A stretch of DNA of 64,000 nt from a virus (IMGVR_UViG_3300033153_007754:89501-153500), one strand, 5' to 3'. Positions 16,150-55,372 are shown, counted from the first letter of the stretch. Numbers and translations: made by a program. The notes: generated by a model from the letters alone, not told the origin.

Positions 16150-16887
16150 TTATATCCCAACAATATTTGGTTTAATTGGTTCTTTTTCATTAACACTTAT
16201 ATTTGCACGTTCTAATTTAATTTGTTTTTCCACATCATTTTCTTCAACTTCAGATTCATTAATTGTGAAATACTCATTAAATACATCTAATCCAATATTG
16301 TTAATCATAGTTTTACAAGATTTACATTTTCCACAATGACTTAAGACATCATCATGAATTAAGGGGTTTTCACACGTAGATATCATTTTTTTTAATTTAT
16401 CGTCAATCATATTCCATATATGTGTTTTTTTTATTTTAATCAAAGGGAATTTCAAAACAGGTCTTCTTACATATGTATGTATAAATGGTTTATAAGCATT
16501 ATATAATCTCTTGATTTCGGGTAAATAACTAATTGCATCATCACCCATAACATAACCTAGATGTATTTCATCAATGCTACTAGAAAAAATACTACACCCC
16601 ATAATCCATAACACCGGTTGTATTAAAGTTGCACTATACAGGTCACCTACTTTAATATCTACTTTCATTTGTGCACGATTAAATTCAACCCGATTGCCAT
16701 ACCTTTCTTTGAAATAATTATAAATTATATCACGAGCCTTGTTTTCCATCTTGGTTTGTGTTATGTTATTCCCTATTTCAAATTTAATTAAATAAACATG
16801 GTTGTCTGTGCTTGCTTCTAAAGCTTTTTGAATTAAATAAGTAGAATCCAAACCACCTGAAAACGGTATTAAAATATCTTTTCTCAT
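16150..16887 (-). CDS. QueC-like PP-loop ATPase
   Basis: 245 residues. SGGLDS at residues 10-15 is the PP-loop that binds ATP and adenylates the substrate. Cys172 and HCGKCKSC (Cys185, 188, 191) form the zinc site found in QueC, the enzyme that makes preQ0 from carboxy-deazaguanine. Phages use this pathway to put deazaguanines in DNA against restriction. No queD, queE, folE or DNA transglycosylase gene is visible here, so either the rest lies elsewhere or the host supplies precursor. A different zinc-containing PP-loop amidating enzyme is the alternative. Start overlaps the upstream stop by one base. Confidence 0.7.
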   Translation of the reverse strand: MRKDILIPFSGGLDSTYLIQKALEASTDNHVYLIKFEIGNNITQTKMENKARDIIYNYFKERYGNRVEFNRAQMKVDIKVGDLYSATLIQPVLWIMGCSIFSSSIDEIHLGYVMGDDAISYLPEIKRLYNAYKPFIHTYVRRPVLKFPLIKIKKTHIWNMIDDKLKKMISTCENPLIHDDVLSHCGKCKSCKTMINNIGLDVFNEYFTINESEVEENDVEKQIKLERANISVNEKEPIKPNIVGI

Positions 16888-38523: not shown

Positions 38524-38552
38524 TTGCAAAACTAAATTGTATGCGTTATAAT
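38524..38552 (+). promoter_or_regulatory. Promoter of the CRISPR-Cas operon
   Basis: TTGCAA (38524-38529), 17 bases, TATAAT (38547-38552), 38 bases before the cas6 start. The operon therefore has its own host-type promoter, facing away from the tail module. Confidence 0.75.
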
Positions 38553-38589
38553 GTGTACGTTGATTAACCACCTTTTTTGAGGTATAAAC

Positions 38590-39282
38590 ATGAAGATTTC
38601 AATAAAATTTAAGTTCACAATACAAATGGATGAATACTGGATAAGCAAACAATACAGAAGAGGTATCGTATCTCTTTTAAAAGATTTATTTGATTCTGCT
38701 GGAATTGATTTATTTAAAACAAACCAGAGAAAGCCGTATACGTTTTCAGTCAAATTCCCTAAATTCGATAAAACAACCAAAACCAATTTCATAACTAGTG
38801 AAAATTGGTTTTGGGTAAACTTTTCAGCTTATGATGATGCAATAGCAAAAAGTATAAAGTCTGAAATATATAAGATTAAATTTTTATCTGCCTTTGGTAA
38901 AGAAATATATGTAGATAAAGTAACTATTAAAGAACAAGATATAATTACAAAAAATGTTATTTTATTTAAAACATTTTCTCCTATTTTAGTAAAGGATGAA
39001 AATGGTAAAAGATTTTTAAATGATTTTAATAAAGATGTTTTTAAACAAAGGTTAATTACCAATATTAAAAATGGATATGAACAATTCACCACCGAAAAAG
39101 CAGGAAGGGTTGATGTATCTTTTAAAAAAGGTAATATGACTGTTGCTGAAACTTATGGTGGTGAAATAGGTTATAAAGGAATCATTAAACTTTTTGCACA
39201 TTCTGATGTTTTACAATTTGTTTATGAAAGTGGAATTGGAAATAAAACAGGCCAAGGCTACGGAATGTTGGAGATATTATGA
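38590..39282 (+). CDS. cas6: Cas6 family pre-crRNA endonuclease
   Basis: 230 residues, start after GAGGTATAAAC. Double-RRM RAMP fold: an N-terminal MKISIKFKFTIQ strand, and the C-terminal glycine-rich GIGNKTGQGYGMLEI that defines Cas6. Cas6 cuts CRISPR repeats and hands crRNA to the effector. Its only His is in LFAHSDVLQF (near residue 204), not at the N-terminal position of the usual catalytic His, so activity may rely on other residues or be lost. First gene of the operon, overlapping the next by four bases (ATGA). Confidence 0.85.
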   Translation: MKISIKFKFTIQMDEYWISKQYRRGIVSLLKDLFDSAGIDLFKTNQRKPYTFSVKFPKFDKTTKTNFITSENWFWVNFSAYDDAIAKSIKSEIYKIKFLSAFGKEIYVDKVTIKEQDIITKNVILFKTFSPILVKDENGKRFLNDFNKDVFKQRLITNIKNGYEQFTTEKAGRVDVSFKKGNMTVAETYGGEIGYKGIIKLFAHSDVLQFVYESGIGNKTGQGYGMLEIL

Positions 39283-39911
39283 AAACTATTAAATTTATAT
39301 CAAAACATCTAACCAAACTGGATTCTGATGTTAGTGGTAAATGTGCTATTTGTGGGGAAGAACATATTGGTTTCAAACTAAAAAAAGTTCTTTCAGCGAA
39401 TTTTAATGATTGGAAATACATCAAAGATGGTAGTACAAAACATGTTTGTGTTGATTGCCAAAGTTGCTTGGGTTCTAAAAACTTTGATGGAAAAGCATTA
39501 AGAAATTATTCTGTTATTATTACAAAAAAAGAAATTAAAAAAATTAAAAGGTCTGACATATTAGAAGTCATTAGAAATCCATTAAAAGAATTTGTTATTA
39601 TAGTTAATTTTTCTCAAAAAAAACACGCTTTTTGGGATGCAAAAATAAATAACAATAAAAGACACACATATATAGCAACAGACAAGGGAAGTTATATTTT
39701 AAATAATAAAAACTTTTTAGAACTATACAATGATTTATTTACATTGTATGAAATGAAAATAAGTAAAACTGAAATGAGGAGTGGAAAATACAATTTTATA
39801 AATTTAATGAAAAACAATAATATTTTTGATATTGATAATAAAATAAAAAAACAACGAGGTACAAACAATTTTGATTTTGCCATTTGGTTGTTACATAAGG
39901 AGGAAAAATGA
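39279..39911 (+). CDS. csf1: Csf1-like (type IV Cas8-like) protein
   Basis: 210 residues with a four-cysteine zinc site: Cys22/Cys25 (KCAICGEEH) and Cys57/Cys60 (HVCVDCQSC, with Cys63 nearby). In type IV systems Csf1 is the large-subunit replacement with such a zinc finger near the N-terminus. The C-terminal two thirds are Lys-rich helices and strands. Placement between cas6 and csf2 and overlapping starts support the call. Could be another zinc-binding Cas protein. Confidence 0.65.
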   Translation: MKTIKFISKHLTKLDSDVSGKCAICGEEHIGFKLKKVLSANFNDWKYIKDGSTKHVCVDCQSCLGSKNFDGKALRNYSVIITKKEIKKIKRSDILEVIRNPLKEFVIIVNFSQKKHAFWDAKINNNKRHTYIATDKGSYILNNKNFLELYNDLFTLYEMKISKTEMRSGKYNFINLMKNNNIFDIDNKIKKQRGTNNFDFAIWLLHKEEK

Positions 39912-41110
39912 TTAAAGTAGATTACAATTTTACAACAACAACACCAGTTCACACAGGGGCCGACACTAATATGGGAACACTAAAGTCTTTAAGAAGACAG
40001 AAGGTTATATTAAAAAAGGCAAAGACTGAAAAAACAAAATACAACACTGAAATGAGAAGGGAAGCATTAAGAGATATTCTTTTTGCAGTTTATAGTAAAA
40101 TTGATAAAGACCAAATTAAAGGAAAAAGATTAATGAAGATTTGGGATGAATTTCATTCCAAAGTTTTACAAGCTGCAACAGCATCAAATAAAATTCAGTT
40201 CTTAAACCGATTATCTCAACTTTGGGATATTAAATCGATTGATGACACCCTGATTTTACAACATTTGGACTATATGTCAGACAGTGAATTATTACAAACT
40301 GTGAGAGACGAAAGCATTTATCTTGTTTTATCTGTTAGAAAATTAAGAGATGACAAAAAGAATAAAGTAAAGAAGACAAAAAATAATCTATTTAGTAACA
40401 TTGAAGAAAAAAAAGAGGTTGAAATTAAAAAATATTATGACCTTGTTCCAGCAATTTCAGGGAATTCAATTAGAGGTATTTTAAGAAGAATTTCCATGAA
40501 GGATTTTGTTGATAGGGTTGGTATAACAAAACTACCAAAAGACTTGTATCATATTCTATTTACTGGTGGAGTACTAGATAGTTCAACCCAATTTGAAAAC
40601 TTAGATAGAAGAGAATCTTTTATAAAAAATAACCCACTTGTAGCCGTTTTTGGTTCTGCTATTGGAAATATGACAATTGAAGGTTTATTATCTGTTGGAT
40701 GGGCTTACCCAAAATGTTTAGAGATGGGTACAAGTGATAAATCTTACTGGACTTATCTTGATACAGTTTTTCAAACAAGAAGGGATGATTCAGAAATTCA
40801 ACACTTTTTGGAATTAGAACAAGGGCATCCTGGAACATCACAAATGAAATATGAATATGAGGTTTTTGCAACAGGAACACCTTTTACACATGCATTTAGA
40901 TTCATGGAACTTGATGATATTACAACATCAGCTTTTTGGAGGGTATTGGAGTTATTTAAAGAAAACAGTAGTATTGGTGGAATGAAAGCAATTGGTAACT
41001 CATATATAGATTTATCAGAAATCAAAATACCAAAAAATGCAAGTAAATTATATTTGGATTATTTAGAAAAAAATAAAAAAACAATAAAAGATTTTTTCGG
41101 GAACTTATAA
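39908..41110 (+). CDS. csf2: Csf2, type IV Cas7 backbone protein
   Basis: 400 residues. Would coat the crRNA as the repeating backbone of the effector. YNFTTTTPVHTGADTNMGTL at the start and PAISGNSIRGILRR at residues 181-194 are the RAMP motifs of Cas7/Csf2, and SSIGGMKAIGNSYIDL near residue 360 is the late Gly-rich loop. Residues about 28-165 are a charged helical insertion. Strong AAGGAGG site inside the csf1 end. Adjacent csf1, csf3 and cysH-like genes fix the type. Confidence 0.82.
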   Translation: MIKVDYNFTTTTPVHTGADTNMGTLKSLRRQKVILKKAKTEKTKYNTEMRREALRDILFAVYSKIDKDQIKGKRLMKIWDEFHSKVLQAATASNKIQFLNRLSQLWDIKSIDDTLILQHLDYMSDSELLQTVRDESIYLVLSVRKLRDDKKNKVKKTKNNLFSNIEEKKEVEIKKYYDLVPAISGNSIRGILRRISMKDFVDRVGITKLPKDLYHILFTGGVLDSSTQFENLDRRESFIKNNPLVAVFGSAIGNMTIEGLLSVGWAYPKCLEMGTSDKSYWTYLDTVFQTRRDDSEIQHFLELEQGHPGTSQMKYEYEVFATGTPFTHAFRFMELDDITTSAFWRVLELFKENSSIGGMKAIGNSYIDLSEIKIPKNASKLYLDYLEKNKKTIKDFFGNL

Positions 41111-41838
41111 TGTTTTATTCAGAAAAACAACTTAATTATAAAATAGATGGTGCAATTAAAACAATTAATACAGCATTGGAACAAGTAGCAAATCCATACA
41201 TTGCTTGTAGTTGGGGAAAAGATAGCATTGTGATGTTATGGTTAATAAGAAAAATTGACAAGAATATCCCAGTTGTTTACATGAATTCTAATTACTCATT
41301 TCCAGATAATTATGAATTCAGAGATAGGATGTTAAAAGAATGGAATATAAAACATTATATTGAACTTCCACCCGTTTCTGATTATAAAGAAATAGTTGAA
41401 ACTTTTGGTTTACCTGGTATTTCCAGAAAATCACAAGACCAAGAAAAAGTTGTTTCTAAATTAAAAAAACAATTAAGACCTGAAATTAAAGAATTTGATT
41501 CAGTGTTTTTAGGTATAAGAGCATCTGAAAGTAGGGCAAGACAAAATATGATAAGATATTCAGGTAAAATAAACACCCTAAAAAATGGAATTACAAAAAT
41601 AATGCCAATTGCAGACTGGACTTTCAAAGAAATGTGGCAAATTGTAAAGGAAAATAATATACCAATGAATACCATATATTCAAAAGATAAATTTTCATCA
41701 CCTGAATGGATAAGAAATTCAGGAATACTATCAACTGATGGGGCTTCGTCTGGAAAAATACAATGGATTAAATATTATTATCCAGCAATTTACAGAAAGT
41801 TATCAGTTGATTATCCGGAGGTAAAAGGGTATGTATAA
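41110..41838 (+). CDS. cysH: CysH-like PP-loop protein of the CRISPR operon
   Basis: 242 residues. YIACSWGKDSIVMLWLI carries the PP-loop (SWGKDS, residues 34-39) that binds ATP or PAPS, and FLGIRASESRARQNMI is the conserved Arg motif of the PAPS-reductase family. The C-terminal ECGLH-type catalytic Cys motif of true reductases is absent. CysH-like proteins are a known accessory of type IV-B CRISPR loci. Inserted between csf2 and csf3, overlapping both (one and eight bases), so translation is coupled. Role unknown. Confidence 0.85.
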   Translation: MFYSEKQLNYKIDGAIKTINTALEQVANPYIACSWGKDSIVMLWLIRKIDKNIPVVYMNSNYSFPDNYEFRDRMLKEWNIKHYIELPPVSDYKEIVETFGLPGISRKSQDQEKVVSKLKKQLRPEIKEFDSVFLGIRASESRARQNMIRYSGKINTLKNGITKIMPIADWTFKEMWQIVKENNIPMNTIYSKDKFSSPEWIRNSGILSTDGASSGKIQWIKYYYPAIYRKLSVDYPEVKGYV

Positions 41839-42466
41839 GATAACATTTAAAATGGTTTCACCTGTTGTTTTAATGGATAATGTCACCTTTGATTCAATAC
41901 TTGCATATTGTGTATATAGTCATTATAGAAAAATTACTGATATTAAAACATCTGGTGGAAAAGAAATTGATGAAAGCAAACAAGACATACCAGTAACAAA
42001 ACATAAGGATGGTTTTTATCTTGCCAGTTGGGATATTACAACAGAAGAACACGAAAGTGTTGAAAGATGGCGGAAAAGATGGGATAACACAAATGATAGA
42101 CTTGCTGATTTTAAAAAAGCAAAAAGAAAAATAGACACTGCACGAGGTAAATATAAATCATATGATATGCCAATTGTAGTAAAAAGCATTGATGAAATAA
42201 GTTTTTATTTTAAATCAAAGGAGGTGGGAAAAGTAAGTTTTTTCATAAATAACTACCTTGTTGGGATTGGTAAGAAAGTTAAAATGGGGTATGGATGGTT
42301 TTCTGGGTTTGAAATAGAAAAAGTAAAAGATAGTGATGTTTTATATTATAGACCAACACCCAAAAACTTTAAATCACCACTTAAAACGATTGATGGTTTT
42401 GGTGGAATTAAACCACCATATTGGCACAATCAACAAGACATAAAAATTCCATCACTACATTTCTAA
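41831..42466 (+). CDS. csf3: Csf3, type IV Cas5 protein
   Basis: 211 residues. RAMP protein: YKITFKMVSPVVLMDNVTFD at the N-terminus and the Gly-rich loop LVGIGKKVKMGYGWFSGFEI near residue 150. Csf3 caps the 5' handle of the crRNA in type IV complexes. Start follows GGAGG within the cysH-like gene. Last gene of the operon, with no helicase, Cas11, adaptation genes or array after it. Confidence 0.78.
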   Translation: MYKITFKMVSPVVLMDNVTFDSILAYCVYSHYRKITDIKTSGGKEIDESKQDIPVTKHKDGFYLASWDITTEEHESVERWRKRWDNTNDRLADFKKAKRKIDTARGKYKSYDMPIVVKSIDEISFYFKSKEVGKVSFFINNYLVGIGKKVKMGYGWFSGFEIEKVKDSDVLYYRPTPKNFKSPLKTIDGFGGIKPPYWHNQQDIKIPSLHF

Positions 42467-49122: not shown

Positions 49123-49773
49123 CTATTTTTTTTCGTCACCATTTTCATACCAATATGTGTAATCCCCTTGACGGCAACCATTTACGTAATTAGATTCACA
49201 TCGTTTCTTTCCATCCATGTAATATTCTATATATTTACCATGTTCTTTTCCATTTACATAATCACGTTCCCTTTCTTTATTACCATCTTCATCCCACCAA
49301 GTTACTTTACCACATATTTTACCATTCACATAATTAACAAACCTTCGTTTCTTACCGTTTTCATGCCACCAAATTTCTTTACCATGTTTTTTACCATTTT
49401 TATGATTTATTTCAAATTCTTTTTTATGATTTTCATAGTATTCTATTTTTAAACCATGTTTAAGACCATCTTTATAGTTTATTTCCCATGCCTTATCACC
49501 ATTATCATACCAAAAAACCTCTTTACCATCTTTTTCCCCATCCTTAAAATCTATTTCCCATTGTTTATCTCCATATTCACTGTAATAAACCTCTTTACCA
49601 TCTTTTTTTCCATCTTTGTAGTTTTCTTCTGATATTACTTTACCATCTTCCCCGTAATAAATCTCTTTACCATGTTTTTTTCCATCTTTATAATTAATTT
49701 CAATTTTTTTATTGCCATTACTATAATTATCAACATAAACACCTGTATATGGTACATTATTTTTAAGATACAT
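49123..49773 (-). CDS. MORN-like repeat protein, YwqK type
   Basis: About 216 residues made almost wholly of nine units of about 23 residues of the type YKDGKKHGKEIYYGEDGK. Units at the N-terminal end are nearly identical, evidence of recent expansion. Start taken at the ATG nine bases after GAGGTG, inside the preceding small gene. Confidence 0.8.
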   Translation of the reverse strand: MYLKNNVPYTGVYVDNYSNGNKKIEINYKDGKKHGKEIYYGEDGKVISEENYKDGKKDGKEVYYSEYGDKQWEIDFKDGEKDGKEVFWYDNGDKAWEINYKDGLKHGLKIEYYENHKKEFEINHKNGKKHGKEIWWHENGKKRRFVNYVNGKICGKVTWWDEDGNKERERDYVNGKEHGKYIEYYMDGKKRCESNYVNGCRQGDYTYWYENGDEKK

Positions 49774-49870
49774 CTGCATCACCTCTTATAATAATTTTTA
49801 ATCTATCATTGTTGATTCCTTGAACTATATTTAAATCAATAACTTTTTCCATTTTATTATCATCACCCAT
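49763..49870 (-). CDS. Candidate 35-residue protein
   Basis: Good site (GGGGGTG, three bases before ATG is close but usable) and its stop overlaps the start of the MORN-like gene by 11 bases, the usual coupling here. Acidic then basic (GDDNKMEKVIDLN...KIIIRGDADVS). Function unknown. Confidence 0.45.
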   Translation of the reverse strand: MGDDNKMEKVIDLNIVQGINNDRLKIIIRGDADVS

Positions 49871-54625: not shown

Positions 54626-55372
54626 TTATATTTGATTTTGTAAAATTTCCATAGGATATTCATCAAAAATTTCTCCTTTTAATTCTCTTCCATTCTTTTT
54701 TTTACTTCTTCTAACTCCATCAGCACCCCATGTACCCCATTGTTTAAAGAAAAATGCTACATCTTGTTTTTTGCATTGATTCTTTATATTTATTACCCAT
54801 TCTTCTTTCATTGAACGAGCTTTAACACCACTTTCTCCACCAACAATTACCCAATGAATACCAGATAAATCTAACACTCCTAAATCCTCTAATAGTGGTT
54901 CTATTGATAGAAATTTTATTCTAGCATTAATATTTCTTAAATAATCAATTCTTGACTTTACGGATTTATCTTCAACTGTAACACCCAACCAAATATTATC
55001 AGATAATTCTTTATCCTTCAGATAGTCATTCATAATCTTTTCTCTTTTGGTTAACAGCTGATAAGTATGTTGAGGAGTATCTTTAATTATTTTAAAAATT
55101 TCATCTAAATATGAATAAGGCATCTCTTCATGAAAAATATCACTCATAGAATTCACAAAAAATTTAGTAGGTTTTTTTACATTTAAAGGCTGAGTAAGCC
55201 TTTCTTTCATTAATGTAAATTTAAAATTATTTTCATAACCTTTTATATTCATTGCTTTTAAACGATGTGCCATTGCTTTTGCATAACAATTTTTACATCC
55301 AGAACTAATTTGAGAACAACCAACAGAAGGATTCCAAGTTGCTTCAGTCCATTCTATTTTAGTTTTTTTCAT
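54626..55372 (-). CDS. DUF5131 (phage Gp37/Gp68) protein
   Basis: 248 residues. KIEWTEATWNPSVGCSQISS and GCKNCYAKAMAHRL carry three Cys (C-x7-C-x2-C), a radical-SAM-like set. NIWLGVTVEDKSVKSRIDYL, FLSIEPLLEDLG and HWVIVGGESGVKARSM are hallmarks of the family found in many phages and mobile elements. Activity unknown; TcmP-like partners, often adjacent in other genomes, were not recognised here. Confidence 0.85.
   Translation of the reverse strand: MKKTKIEWTEATWNPSVGCSQISSGCKNCYAKAMAHRLKAMNIKGYENNFKFTLMKERLTQPLNVKKPTKFFVNSMSDIFHEEMPYSYLDEIFKIIKDTPQHTYQLLTKREKIMNDYLKDKELSDNIWLGVTVEDKSVKSRIDYLRNINARIKFLSIEPLLEDLGVLDLSGIHWVIVGGESGVKARSMKEEWVINIKNQCKKQDVAFFFKQWGTWGADGVRRSKKKNGRELKGEIFDEYPMEILQNQI

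What the first reader, a model, noticed from the sequence alone, without database searches (positions are those of the whole stretch)
38524..42466. Phage-borne type IV-like CRISPR-Cas operon with both Cas6 and a CysH-like protein
Five overlapping + strand genes (cas6, csf1-like, csf2, cysH-like, csf3) with their own promoter sit between tail genes and accessory genes. Known type IV-B loci have the CysH-like protein but usually lack Cas6 and arrays; type IV-A has Cas6 with the helicase DinG but no CysH. This locus joins the two and shows no helicase, no Cas11 and no array in the window. It is also in a lytic-looking T4-type genome, whereas type IV is known mainly from plasmids. It could arm the phage against rivals or use crRNA from elsewhere.
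Basis: partly seen in the sequence, partly recalled or inferred. Interest (0 to 1): 0.92.

Follow-up and report, generated by a model that had tools for sequence, protein, structure and literature searches.

The report
Phage type IV CRISPR with fused Cas7-Cas11
A T4-like virus of bacteria carries a five-gene, array-less CRISPR-type RNA-binding complex in which two normally separate backbone proteins are merged into one and an RNA-gripping Cas6 protein has been added, so the virus may capture its host's own CRISPR guide RNAs instead of making any.

Summary
Window 38590-42466 encodes cas6, csf1, csf2, cysH-like and csf3, translationally overlapping, in a T4-type phage record of 153,500 bases with a 114-base exact terminal repeat, so probably a complete genome. 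It has no CRISPR array, Cas1 or DinG. All three Csf proteins hit type IV profiles best. Nineteen loci share this fusion (16 in virus records, 3 in metagenome-assembled genomes). They form one group (support 100), distinct from 21 loci with separate cas11, and the fusion is absent from the named phages, plasmids and papers searched. The CysH-like gene keeps its PP-loop but lacks the catalytic cysteine, as in IV-B. Cas6 occurs only here. It resembles type I-B Cas6 rather than type IV Cas6 and lacks the catalytic histidine. One relative has an array with a I-C-like repeat. I read this as a IV-B-derived new variant. The most likely mechanism, inferred and not shown, is that Cas6 captures host repeat RNA and loads it on the filament, diverting host crRNAs or re-using them as guides. 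The host is unresolved.

The parts
38524..38552 (+). possible sigma-70-type promoter (TTGCAA-17-TATAAT)
   Evidence: 10 of 12 consensus matches, but the number of such sites in the region is no more than in shuffles
38579..38582 (+). Shine-Dalgarno-like GAGG before cas6
   Evidence: sequence; 31 of 51 called starts in the window have an SD-like 4-mer against 3% background
38590..39282 (+). cas6 (230 aa), Cas6b / type I-B-like, N-terminal catalytic His absent
   Evidence: PADLOC Cas6b 2.6e-33, TIGR01877 3.6e-23 above cut-off, Pfam Cas6_C 1.1e-17; nearest relatives in type I-B-like operons; no His at the catalytic position
39279..39911 (+). csf1 (type IV Cas8-like large subunit, 210 aa) with CxxC...CxxC
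   Evidence: PADLOC Csf1_0_IV 8.3e-33; TIGR03114 5e-14 (below its cut-off); Cys 22, 25, 57, 60 invariant in six relatives
39908..41110 (+). csf2 (Cas7, 400 aa) carrying an inserted Cas11 domain
   Evidence: PADLOC Csf2_0_IV 1.5e-43; AF2 pLDDT 81.8, pTM 0.74; the 27 best PDB fold matches are all type IV Csf2 complexes
40046..40363 (+). Cas11 small-subunit domain inserted in Csf2 (helices 47-152)
   Evidence: PADLOC Cas11_1_IV 5.6e-11; HMM seeded with the insert recovers the standalone Cas11 of IV-B loci; hhalign probability 96.5, E 8e-10 against standalone Cas11; six helices between strands of the Cas7 core
41110..41838 (+). cysH-like gene (242 aa)
   Evidence: Pfam PAPS_reduct 8.9e-26; present in 16 of 18 assessable fused loci
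41209..41226 (+). PP-loop SWGKDS of the CysH-like protein
   Evidence: kept in the family as S-x-G-K-D-S; the protein's single Cys (C33) lies directly before it and the C-terminal catalytic Cys is absent
41831..42466 (+). csf3 (type IV Cas5, 211 aa)
   Evidence: PADLOC Csf3_0_IV 9.9e-31; TIGR03116 4.4e-18 (below its cut-off)

Best explanation
This is a IV-B-derived class 1 CRISPR effector operon carried by a T4-type phage; its fused lineage is found in 16 virus records. Its Cas11 small subunit has been inserted once into a hairpin loop of the Cas7 subunit Csf2, so each backbone subunit brings its own small subunit. Csf2-Cas11, Csf3 and Csf1 form an RNA-binding filament with no nuclease or helicase of its own. 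In this phage a type I-B-like Cas6 has been added at the head of the operon. Because the apparently complete genome has no array, I propose that Cas6 grips the repeat of host crRNA or pre-crRNA and loads it onto the filament. The most likely benefit is counter-defence, by diverting crRNAs from the host's own complexes. Re-using the captured guides against rival mobile elements is the second reading. The CysH-like enzyme would bind ATP with its PP-loop and modify a substrate that remains unknown. Gene identities, the fusion, its single origin and the absence of array, Cas1 and DinG are shown here; filament formation, crRNA capture, its effect and the CysH role are inferred.
For: Profiles for all five genes. 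Cas11 insert by profile, HMM survey, hhalign and AF2. Single origin, support 100. Relatives L009 and L011 lie beside phage portal, capsid or terminase genes. Record with a 114-nt exact terminal repeat and no array, Cas1 or DinG. Cas6 is translationally coupled to csf1 and has the base composition of the phage. Nearest Cas6 proteins sit in cas6-cas8-like-cas7-cas5-cas3 operons, and the two with an array nearby share one repeat type. A fused relative, L011, has an array of at least 11 repeats with a I-C-like repeat 0.95 kb after cysH but no Cas6. PMC11656645 describes CAST complexes that bind host crRNAs through Cas6.
Against: The one purified IV-B complex bound heterogeneous RNA and did not enrich crRNAs even when Cas6 and an array were co-expressed (PMC7937560). 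The nearest Cas6 found is only about 24-30% identical and its real RNA target is unknown. The host is unresolved, so no host array could be tested. Cas6 was found in none of the other 18 fused loci, so it is not needed by the lineage.
Confidence: 0.45

Rival explanations
1. Guide-directed weapon: the complex loads host or co-infecting-element crRNAs processed by the phage Cas6 and silences rival phages or plasmids by binding their DNA or transcripts, as IV-A does.
For: IV-A is described as nuclease-independent interference that suppresses gene expression and serves plasmid competition (PMC11519345 abstract). L011 has a real array of 10 complete 33-34 nt spacers beside a fused locus, and the L017 phage has a Cas12f-like gene with its own mini-array, so spacer-carrying CRISPR does occur in phages of this lineage.
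Against: No array in this genome, no DinG helicase, no identified effector. L011 spacers gave no convincing hit in the sequences held.
Confidence: 0.25
2. Non-CRISPR RNA complex: the filament binds phage or host small RNAs without repeat specificity and presents them to the CysH-like enzyme; Cas6 has become a general RNA-binding or structural cap.
For: The purified IV-B complex of Mycobacterium sp. JS623 bound heterogeneous RNA. Cas6 lacks the catalytic His. CysH is the most constant accessory gene (16 of 18). Most fused loci have neither Cas6 nor an array.
Against: An added Cas6 that keeps its conserved C-terminal glycines and the K-x-x-T-F motif is hard to explain without repeat-like RNA. 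Archaeal Cas6 lacking the His is still an active crRNA-processing enzyme (PMC3652601).
Confidence: 0.2
3. Decaying or chance cargo: a type IV operon picked up by the phage with no present function.
For: The closest relatives of the operon are only about 50% identical in Csf2, and no close relative of the phage was found to show that it is kept; Cas6 lacks the catalytic His.
Against: Five intact overlapping ORFs with conserved motifs, phage-like composition, and related loci in 15 other virus records.
Confidence: 0.05

Closest known systems
Type IV-B CRISPR-Cas (csf1-cas11-csf2-csf3 with cysH-like; Mycobacterium sp. JS623 complex, PDB 7jhy)
   Same: Csf1, Cas11, Csf2, Csf3 and a CysH-like protein; no array, no DinG; best Csf2 sequence and fold relatives include 7jhy
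   Different: Cas11 is inserted in Csf2 instead of being a separate gene; a Cas6 is present; carried by a T4-type phage
Fuxivirus type IV-B locus of Bathyarchaeia viruses (PMC10848311)
   Same: virus-borne IV-B effector module with a CysH-like gene and no adaptation module
   Different: that locus is in a virus of archaea, has a mini-array, and Cas11 is treated there as a protein of its own; a text search of the paper finds no Cas6
Type IV-A (csf1-3, csf5/Cas6, DinG, array)
   Same: Csf1-3 homologues plus a Cas6
   Different: no DinG, no array; Cas11 and CysH present; the Cas6 is of the Cas6b/I-B kind
Cas7-11 effectors of subtypes III-E and III-I
   Same: Cas7 and Cas11 domains in one polypeptide
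   Different: those fuse several Cas7 domains with Cas11 in series (PMC12669027); here one Cas7 carries Cas11 inside a hairpin, so it would act as a repeated subunit
Type I-B-like Cas6 (Bacteroidota operons L067-L070)
   Same: nearest Cas6 sequences found (24-30% identity over most of the protein)
   Different: those are in cellular genomes next to cas8-like, cas7, cas5 and cas3 genes, and have a His before the K-P-F-T-F motif

Membership tests
Type IV CRISPR-Cas | Csf1, Csf2 and Csf3 homologues | tested here: met
   best profiles are type IV for all three (8e-33, 1.5e-43, 1e-30), type III far weaker; NCBIfam equivalog models hit but below cut-off; fold matches are type IV Csf2
Type IV-B | Cas11 small subunit present | tested here: met
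   present as a domain inside Csf2, not as its own gene
Type IV-B | CysH-like gene in the operon, catalytic Cys absent | tested here: met
   definition from PMC8175902
Type IV-B | no CRISPR array and no adaptation module | tested here: met
   record has a 114-nt terminal repeat
Type IV-B | lacks a crRNA-processing enzyme (Cas6) | tested here: not met
   Cas6 present at 38590-39282; whether it cleaves is not testable here
Type IV-B | separate cas11 and csf2 genes | tested here: not met
   fused in this and 18 other loci; separate in 21 loci
Type IV-A | DinG helicase (Csf4) | tested here: not met
   no match in G000 even at E 10 for TIGR03117 or Helicase_C_2
Type IV-A | own CRISPR array | tested here: not met
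Type IV-C | Cas10-like large subunit in place of Csf1 | tested here: not met
   large subunit is Csf1
Type III-E / III-I Cas7-11 | several Cas7 domains and one Cas11 in a single effector | tested here: not met
   400-aa protein with one Cas7 core and one Cas11 insert
Functional crRNA-guided complex | binds crRNA and a matching target | not testable with these tools
   needs biochemistry

The most novel reading that the evidence does not exclude
A phage-centred lineage of type IV, deserving its own subtype or variant, in which a Cas7-Cas11 fusion builds the filament and which in this phage uses a captured Cas6 to load the host's own crRNAs, turning host immunity RNA into either a decoy or a weapon.
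Probability: 0.35. Interest if true: 0.88.

Novelty: new variant of a known kind. Interest (0 to 1): 0.7.

Why it matters
What type IV-B complexes do, and which RNA they carry, is an open question. A IV-B-like operon that kept or regained a Cas6 offers a direct handle: the RNA bound by that Cas6 would say what the complex loads. The Cas7-Cas11 fusion fixes subunit stoichiometry and gives a compact filament for structural work. It also suggests that fusion of Cas7 and Cas11 has happened in type IV as well as type III. If crRNA capture is right, it would be a protein-complex route for a phage to exploit host CRISPR without any array of its own.

Tried and rejected
Array elsewhere in the phage genome: only 72-nt-period coding repeats (MORN_2 proteins) were found. 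Solitary repeat similar to I-B or L011 repeats in G000: best matches no better than shuffles. Other virus-borne relatives of this Cas6: two viral scans found none; INPHARED had only two unannotated Listeria phage records at 28% identity. Weak Cas6-model hits in other type IV records were taken as Csf3 C-termini where coordinates were compared (L031 falls inside csf3); not all were checked. Empty-site comparison through the neighbouring baseplate gene: no relatives found. Host by protein similarity gave conflicting answers: RNR nearest Bacteroides phages, sheath nearest Campylobacter phages, polymerase and capsid nearest cyanophages and marine viruses; strong SD motifs argue against a typical Bacteroidota host. 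Cas6 structure from a single sequence was poor (pLDDT 42) and is not used. BFVD fold search found nothing below 0.01. No PDB chain matched the insert by sequence, so its identity rests on Cas11 profiles and standalone Cas11 genes. Rfam found nothing at gathering scores. Type I or III identity was considered and rejected on profile scores. Pinilla-Redondo 2020, Moya-Beltran 2021 and Al-Shayeb 2022 are not held, so novelty was not checked against them.

Full report
1. What is there. The window is the last 64 kb of a 153,500-base IMG/VR virus record. The record's last 114 bases repeat its first 114 exactly, so the genome is probably complete. It is a T4-type phage: gp23-like major head protein (phrog_138, 4e-45), gp41-like helicase, contractile tail sheath, baseplate wedge, family B polymerase and a large ribonucleotide reductase. 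G+C is 27%. At 38590-42466 five + strand genes overlap one another by 1-8 nt, in a region where most genes lie on the minus strand (57 minus against 13 plus ORFs over 100 aa). Their G+C and third-position G+C match the phage.

2. Identities. Gene 1 is a Cas6 of the Cas6b kind (PADLOC 113.7 bits; type IV Cas6 model only 32.4 bits; NCBIfam Cas6 above cut-off). Gene 2 is Csf1 (8.3e-33) with four invariant cysteines. Gene 3 is Csf2. Gene 4 is a PAPS-reductase-family, CysH-like protein. Gene 5 is Csf3. The NCBIfam equivalog models for Csf1-3 hit well below their cut-offs, which fits a divergent lineage.

3. Residues 49-158 of Csf2 hit a type IV Cas11 model (5.6e-11). In separate-gene Csf2 the sequence runs LRTIMVYVDGIGEVPIPYISGNGIRG; in this family a matching LRRQK stretch is followed by roughly 125 extra residues before the shared P-x-I-S-G-N-S-I-R-G. 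An HMM seeded with the insert recovers the standalone Cas11 proteins of IV-B loci, and the two profiles align over 90 columns (hhalign probability 96.5, E 8e-10). AlphaFold2 with 17 sequences (pLDDT 82, pTM 0.74) shows six helices at 47-152 between two strands of the Cas7 core. The best fold matches in the PDB are type IV Csf2 complexes (ranks 1-27), including 7jhy of IV-B. The insert has no convincing sequence match in the PDB.

4. The family. Scans of IMG/VR and GTDB contigs gave 19 loci with the fusion (16 virus records counting the window; L007 and L008 are near-identical; three contigs of metagenome-assembled genomes) and 21 with separate cas11. A tree of 256 core columns separates fused from split with support 100 and a long branch, so the fusion most likely arose once. 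No named phage in INPHARED and none of 63 plasmid records with a match has the fused form. Fused loci in L009 and L011 sit next to portal, terminase or capsid genes. CysH is present in 16 of 18 assessable fused loci; L014 and L018 lack it. The Csf3 scan added six more distant type IV virus loci; none of those six has Cas6 either.

5. CysH-like protein. It keeps the PP-loop (SWGKDS) but has a single cysteine, directly before that loop, and none at the catalytic C-terminal position. This is the pattern reported for IV-B CasCysH (PMC8175902).

6. Cas6. Among the 39 records searched, clear Cas6 matches occur only here and in the metagenome-assembled genomes. The nearest relatives found (24-30% identity) lie in genomes of the phylum of G028 (a Paludibacter bin, so Bacteroidota) at the head of cas6-cas8-like-cas7-cas5-cas3 operons, which I read as type I-B; two have arrays of the repeat GTCTTAATCGCACTACAGTAGAATTGAAAC or a close variant. 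The position of the catalytic His in Pyrococcus/Methanosarcina-type Cas6 is Phe here, or Asn by the closer Bacteroidota alignment, and the only His is in the C-terminal half. Loss of this His does not prove inactivity: Sulfolobus Cas6 lacks it and still processes crRNA (PMC3652601).

7. Guides. There is no array, Cas1 or repeat-like unit in the phage. One fused relative, L011, has an array of at least 11 repeats (GTTTCAATCCACGCCCCCGCGCGGGGGGCGAC, I-C-like by my own knowledge) about 0.95 kb after cysH. One separate-cas11 locus, L045, has a four-repeat array 0.8 kb after cysH. So the rule that IV-B-type loci lack arrays has exceptions, as already noted for Fuxivirus (PMC10848311).

8. How it most likely works. 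Shown: gene content, fusion, single origin, absence of array, Cas1 and DinG. From published work: Csf2 and Cas11 form a filament on RNA, and the purified IV-B complex bound mixed RNA, not crRNA (PMC7937560). Inferred: Cas6 provides repeat recognition and lets the complex load host crRNA or pre-crRNA; the benefit to the phage is diversion of host crRNAs or their re-use as guides. CAST systems that borrow host crRNAs through Cas6 are a precedent (PMC11656645). The substrate of the CysH-like protein remains unknown.

9. Membership. It belongs to type IV and is nearest to IV-B, but it fails two usual IV-B features: it has a Cas6, and its Cas11 and Csf2 are one gene. It fails IV-A (no DinG, no array) and IV-C (Csf1, not Cas10). 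I therefore call it a new variant derived from IV-B. The 2025 classification counts three type IV subtypes and, in the passages read, mentions Cas7-Cas11 fusions only for III-E and III-I (PMC12669027). Three key type IV papers could not be read, so the novelty of the fusion is probable, not certain.

10. Limits. The host is unresolved. No close relative of this phage was found, so no empty-site comparison or selection test was possible. The 'complete genome' statement rests on the terminal repeat. Function has not been tested.

Noticed in passing
L094:3347-4895 (record of L017, a fused-lineage phage): Mini-CRISPR array (three ~31-nt repeats AGTCCAAGAYGAACTATAGTGTGATGGTAAC plus a degenerate fourth) directly upstream of a 434-aa Cas12f-like protein (PADLOC Cas12f 1.2e-74), in the same phage as a fused type IV locus.
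   Followed up: partly
L011:10415-11107: Array of at least 11 I-C-like repeats with 33-34 nt spacers running towards the contig end, in a contig with phage portal and head genes and a fused type IV locus.
   Followed up: partly
L045:4044-4297: Four-repeat array (CTCGCAACCAGACCAGTAGGGTCTGCGTGTTGCGAG) 0.8 kb after cysH of a separate-cas11 IV-B locus.
   Followed up: no
L010:9999-11836 and L015:10900-12554: A second, longer PAPS-reductase-family gene (379-405 aa; L015 matches phrog_2302) followed by a ParB-like gene lies between cysH and csf3, an IbrA/IbrB-like pair; similar long PAPS-reductase genes lie near several split loci.
   Followed up: partly
L014 and L018 fused loci: No CysH-like gene is found; L014 instead has a DNA methyltransferase just after csf3.
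   Followed up: no
G000 1-26000 (L002, L003) and window 49126-49782: Many proteins built of 24-residue MORN_2 (YwqK-like) repeats, encoded as 72-nt repeats, fill much of the first 26 kb of the phage genome.
   Followed up: partly
window 16153-16887 (-) and 54629-55372 (-): A QueC-like protein (possible 7-deazaguanine chemistry) and a DUF5131 protein matching PADLOC candidate defence models PDC-M30B/M41B at 1e-116 and 1e-108.
   Followed up: no
L061 and L065: Tandem pairs of Cas6 genes in Bacteroidota genomes; in L061 the second copy lacks the usual LHD motif.
   Followed up: no
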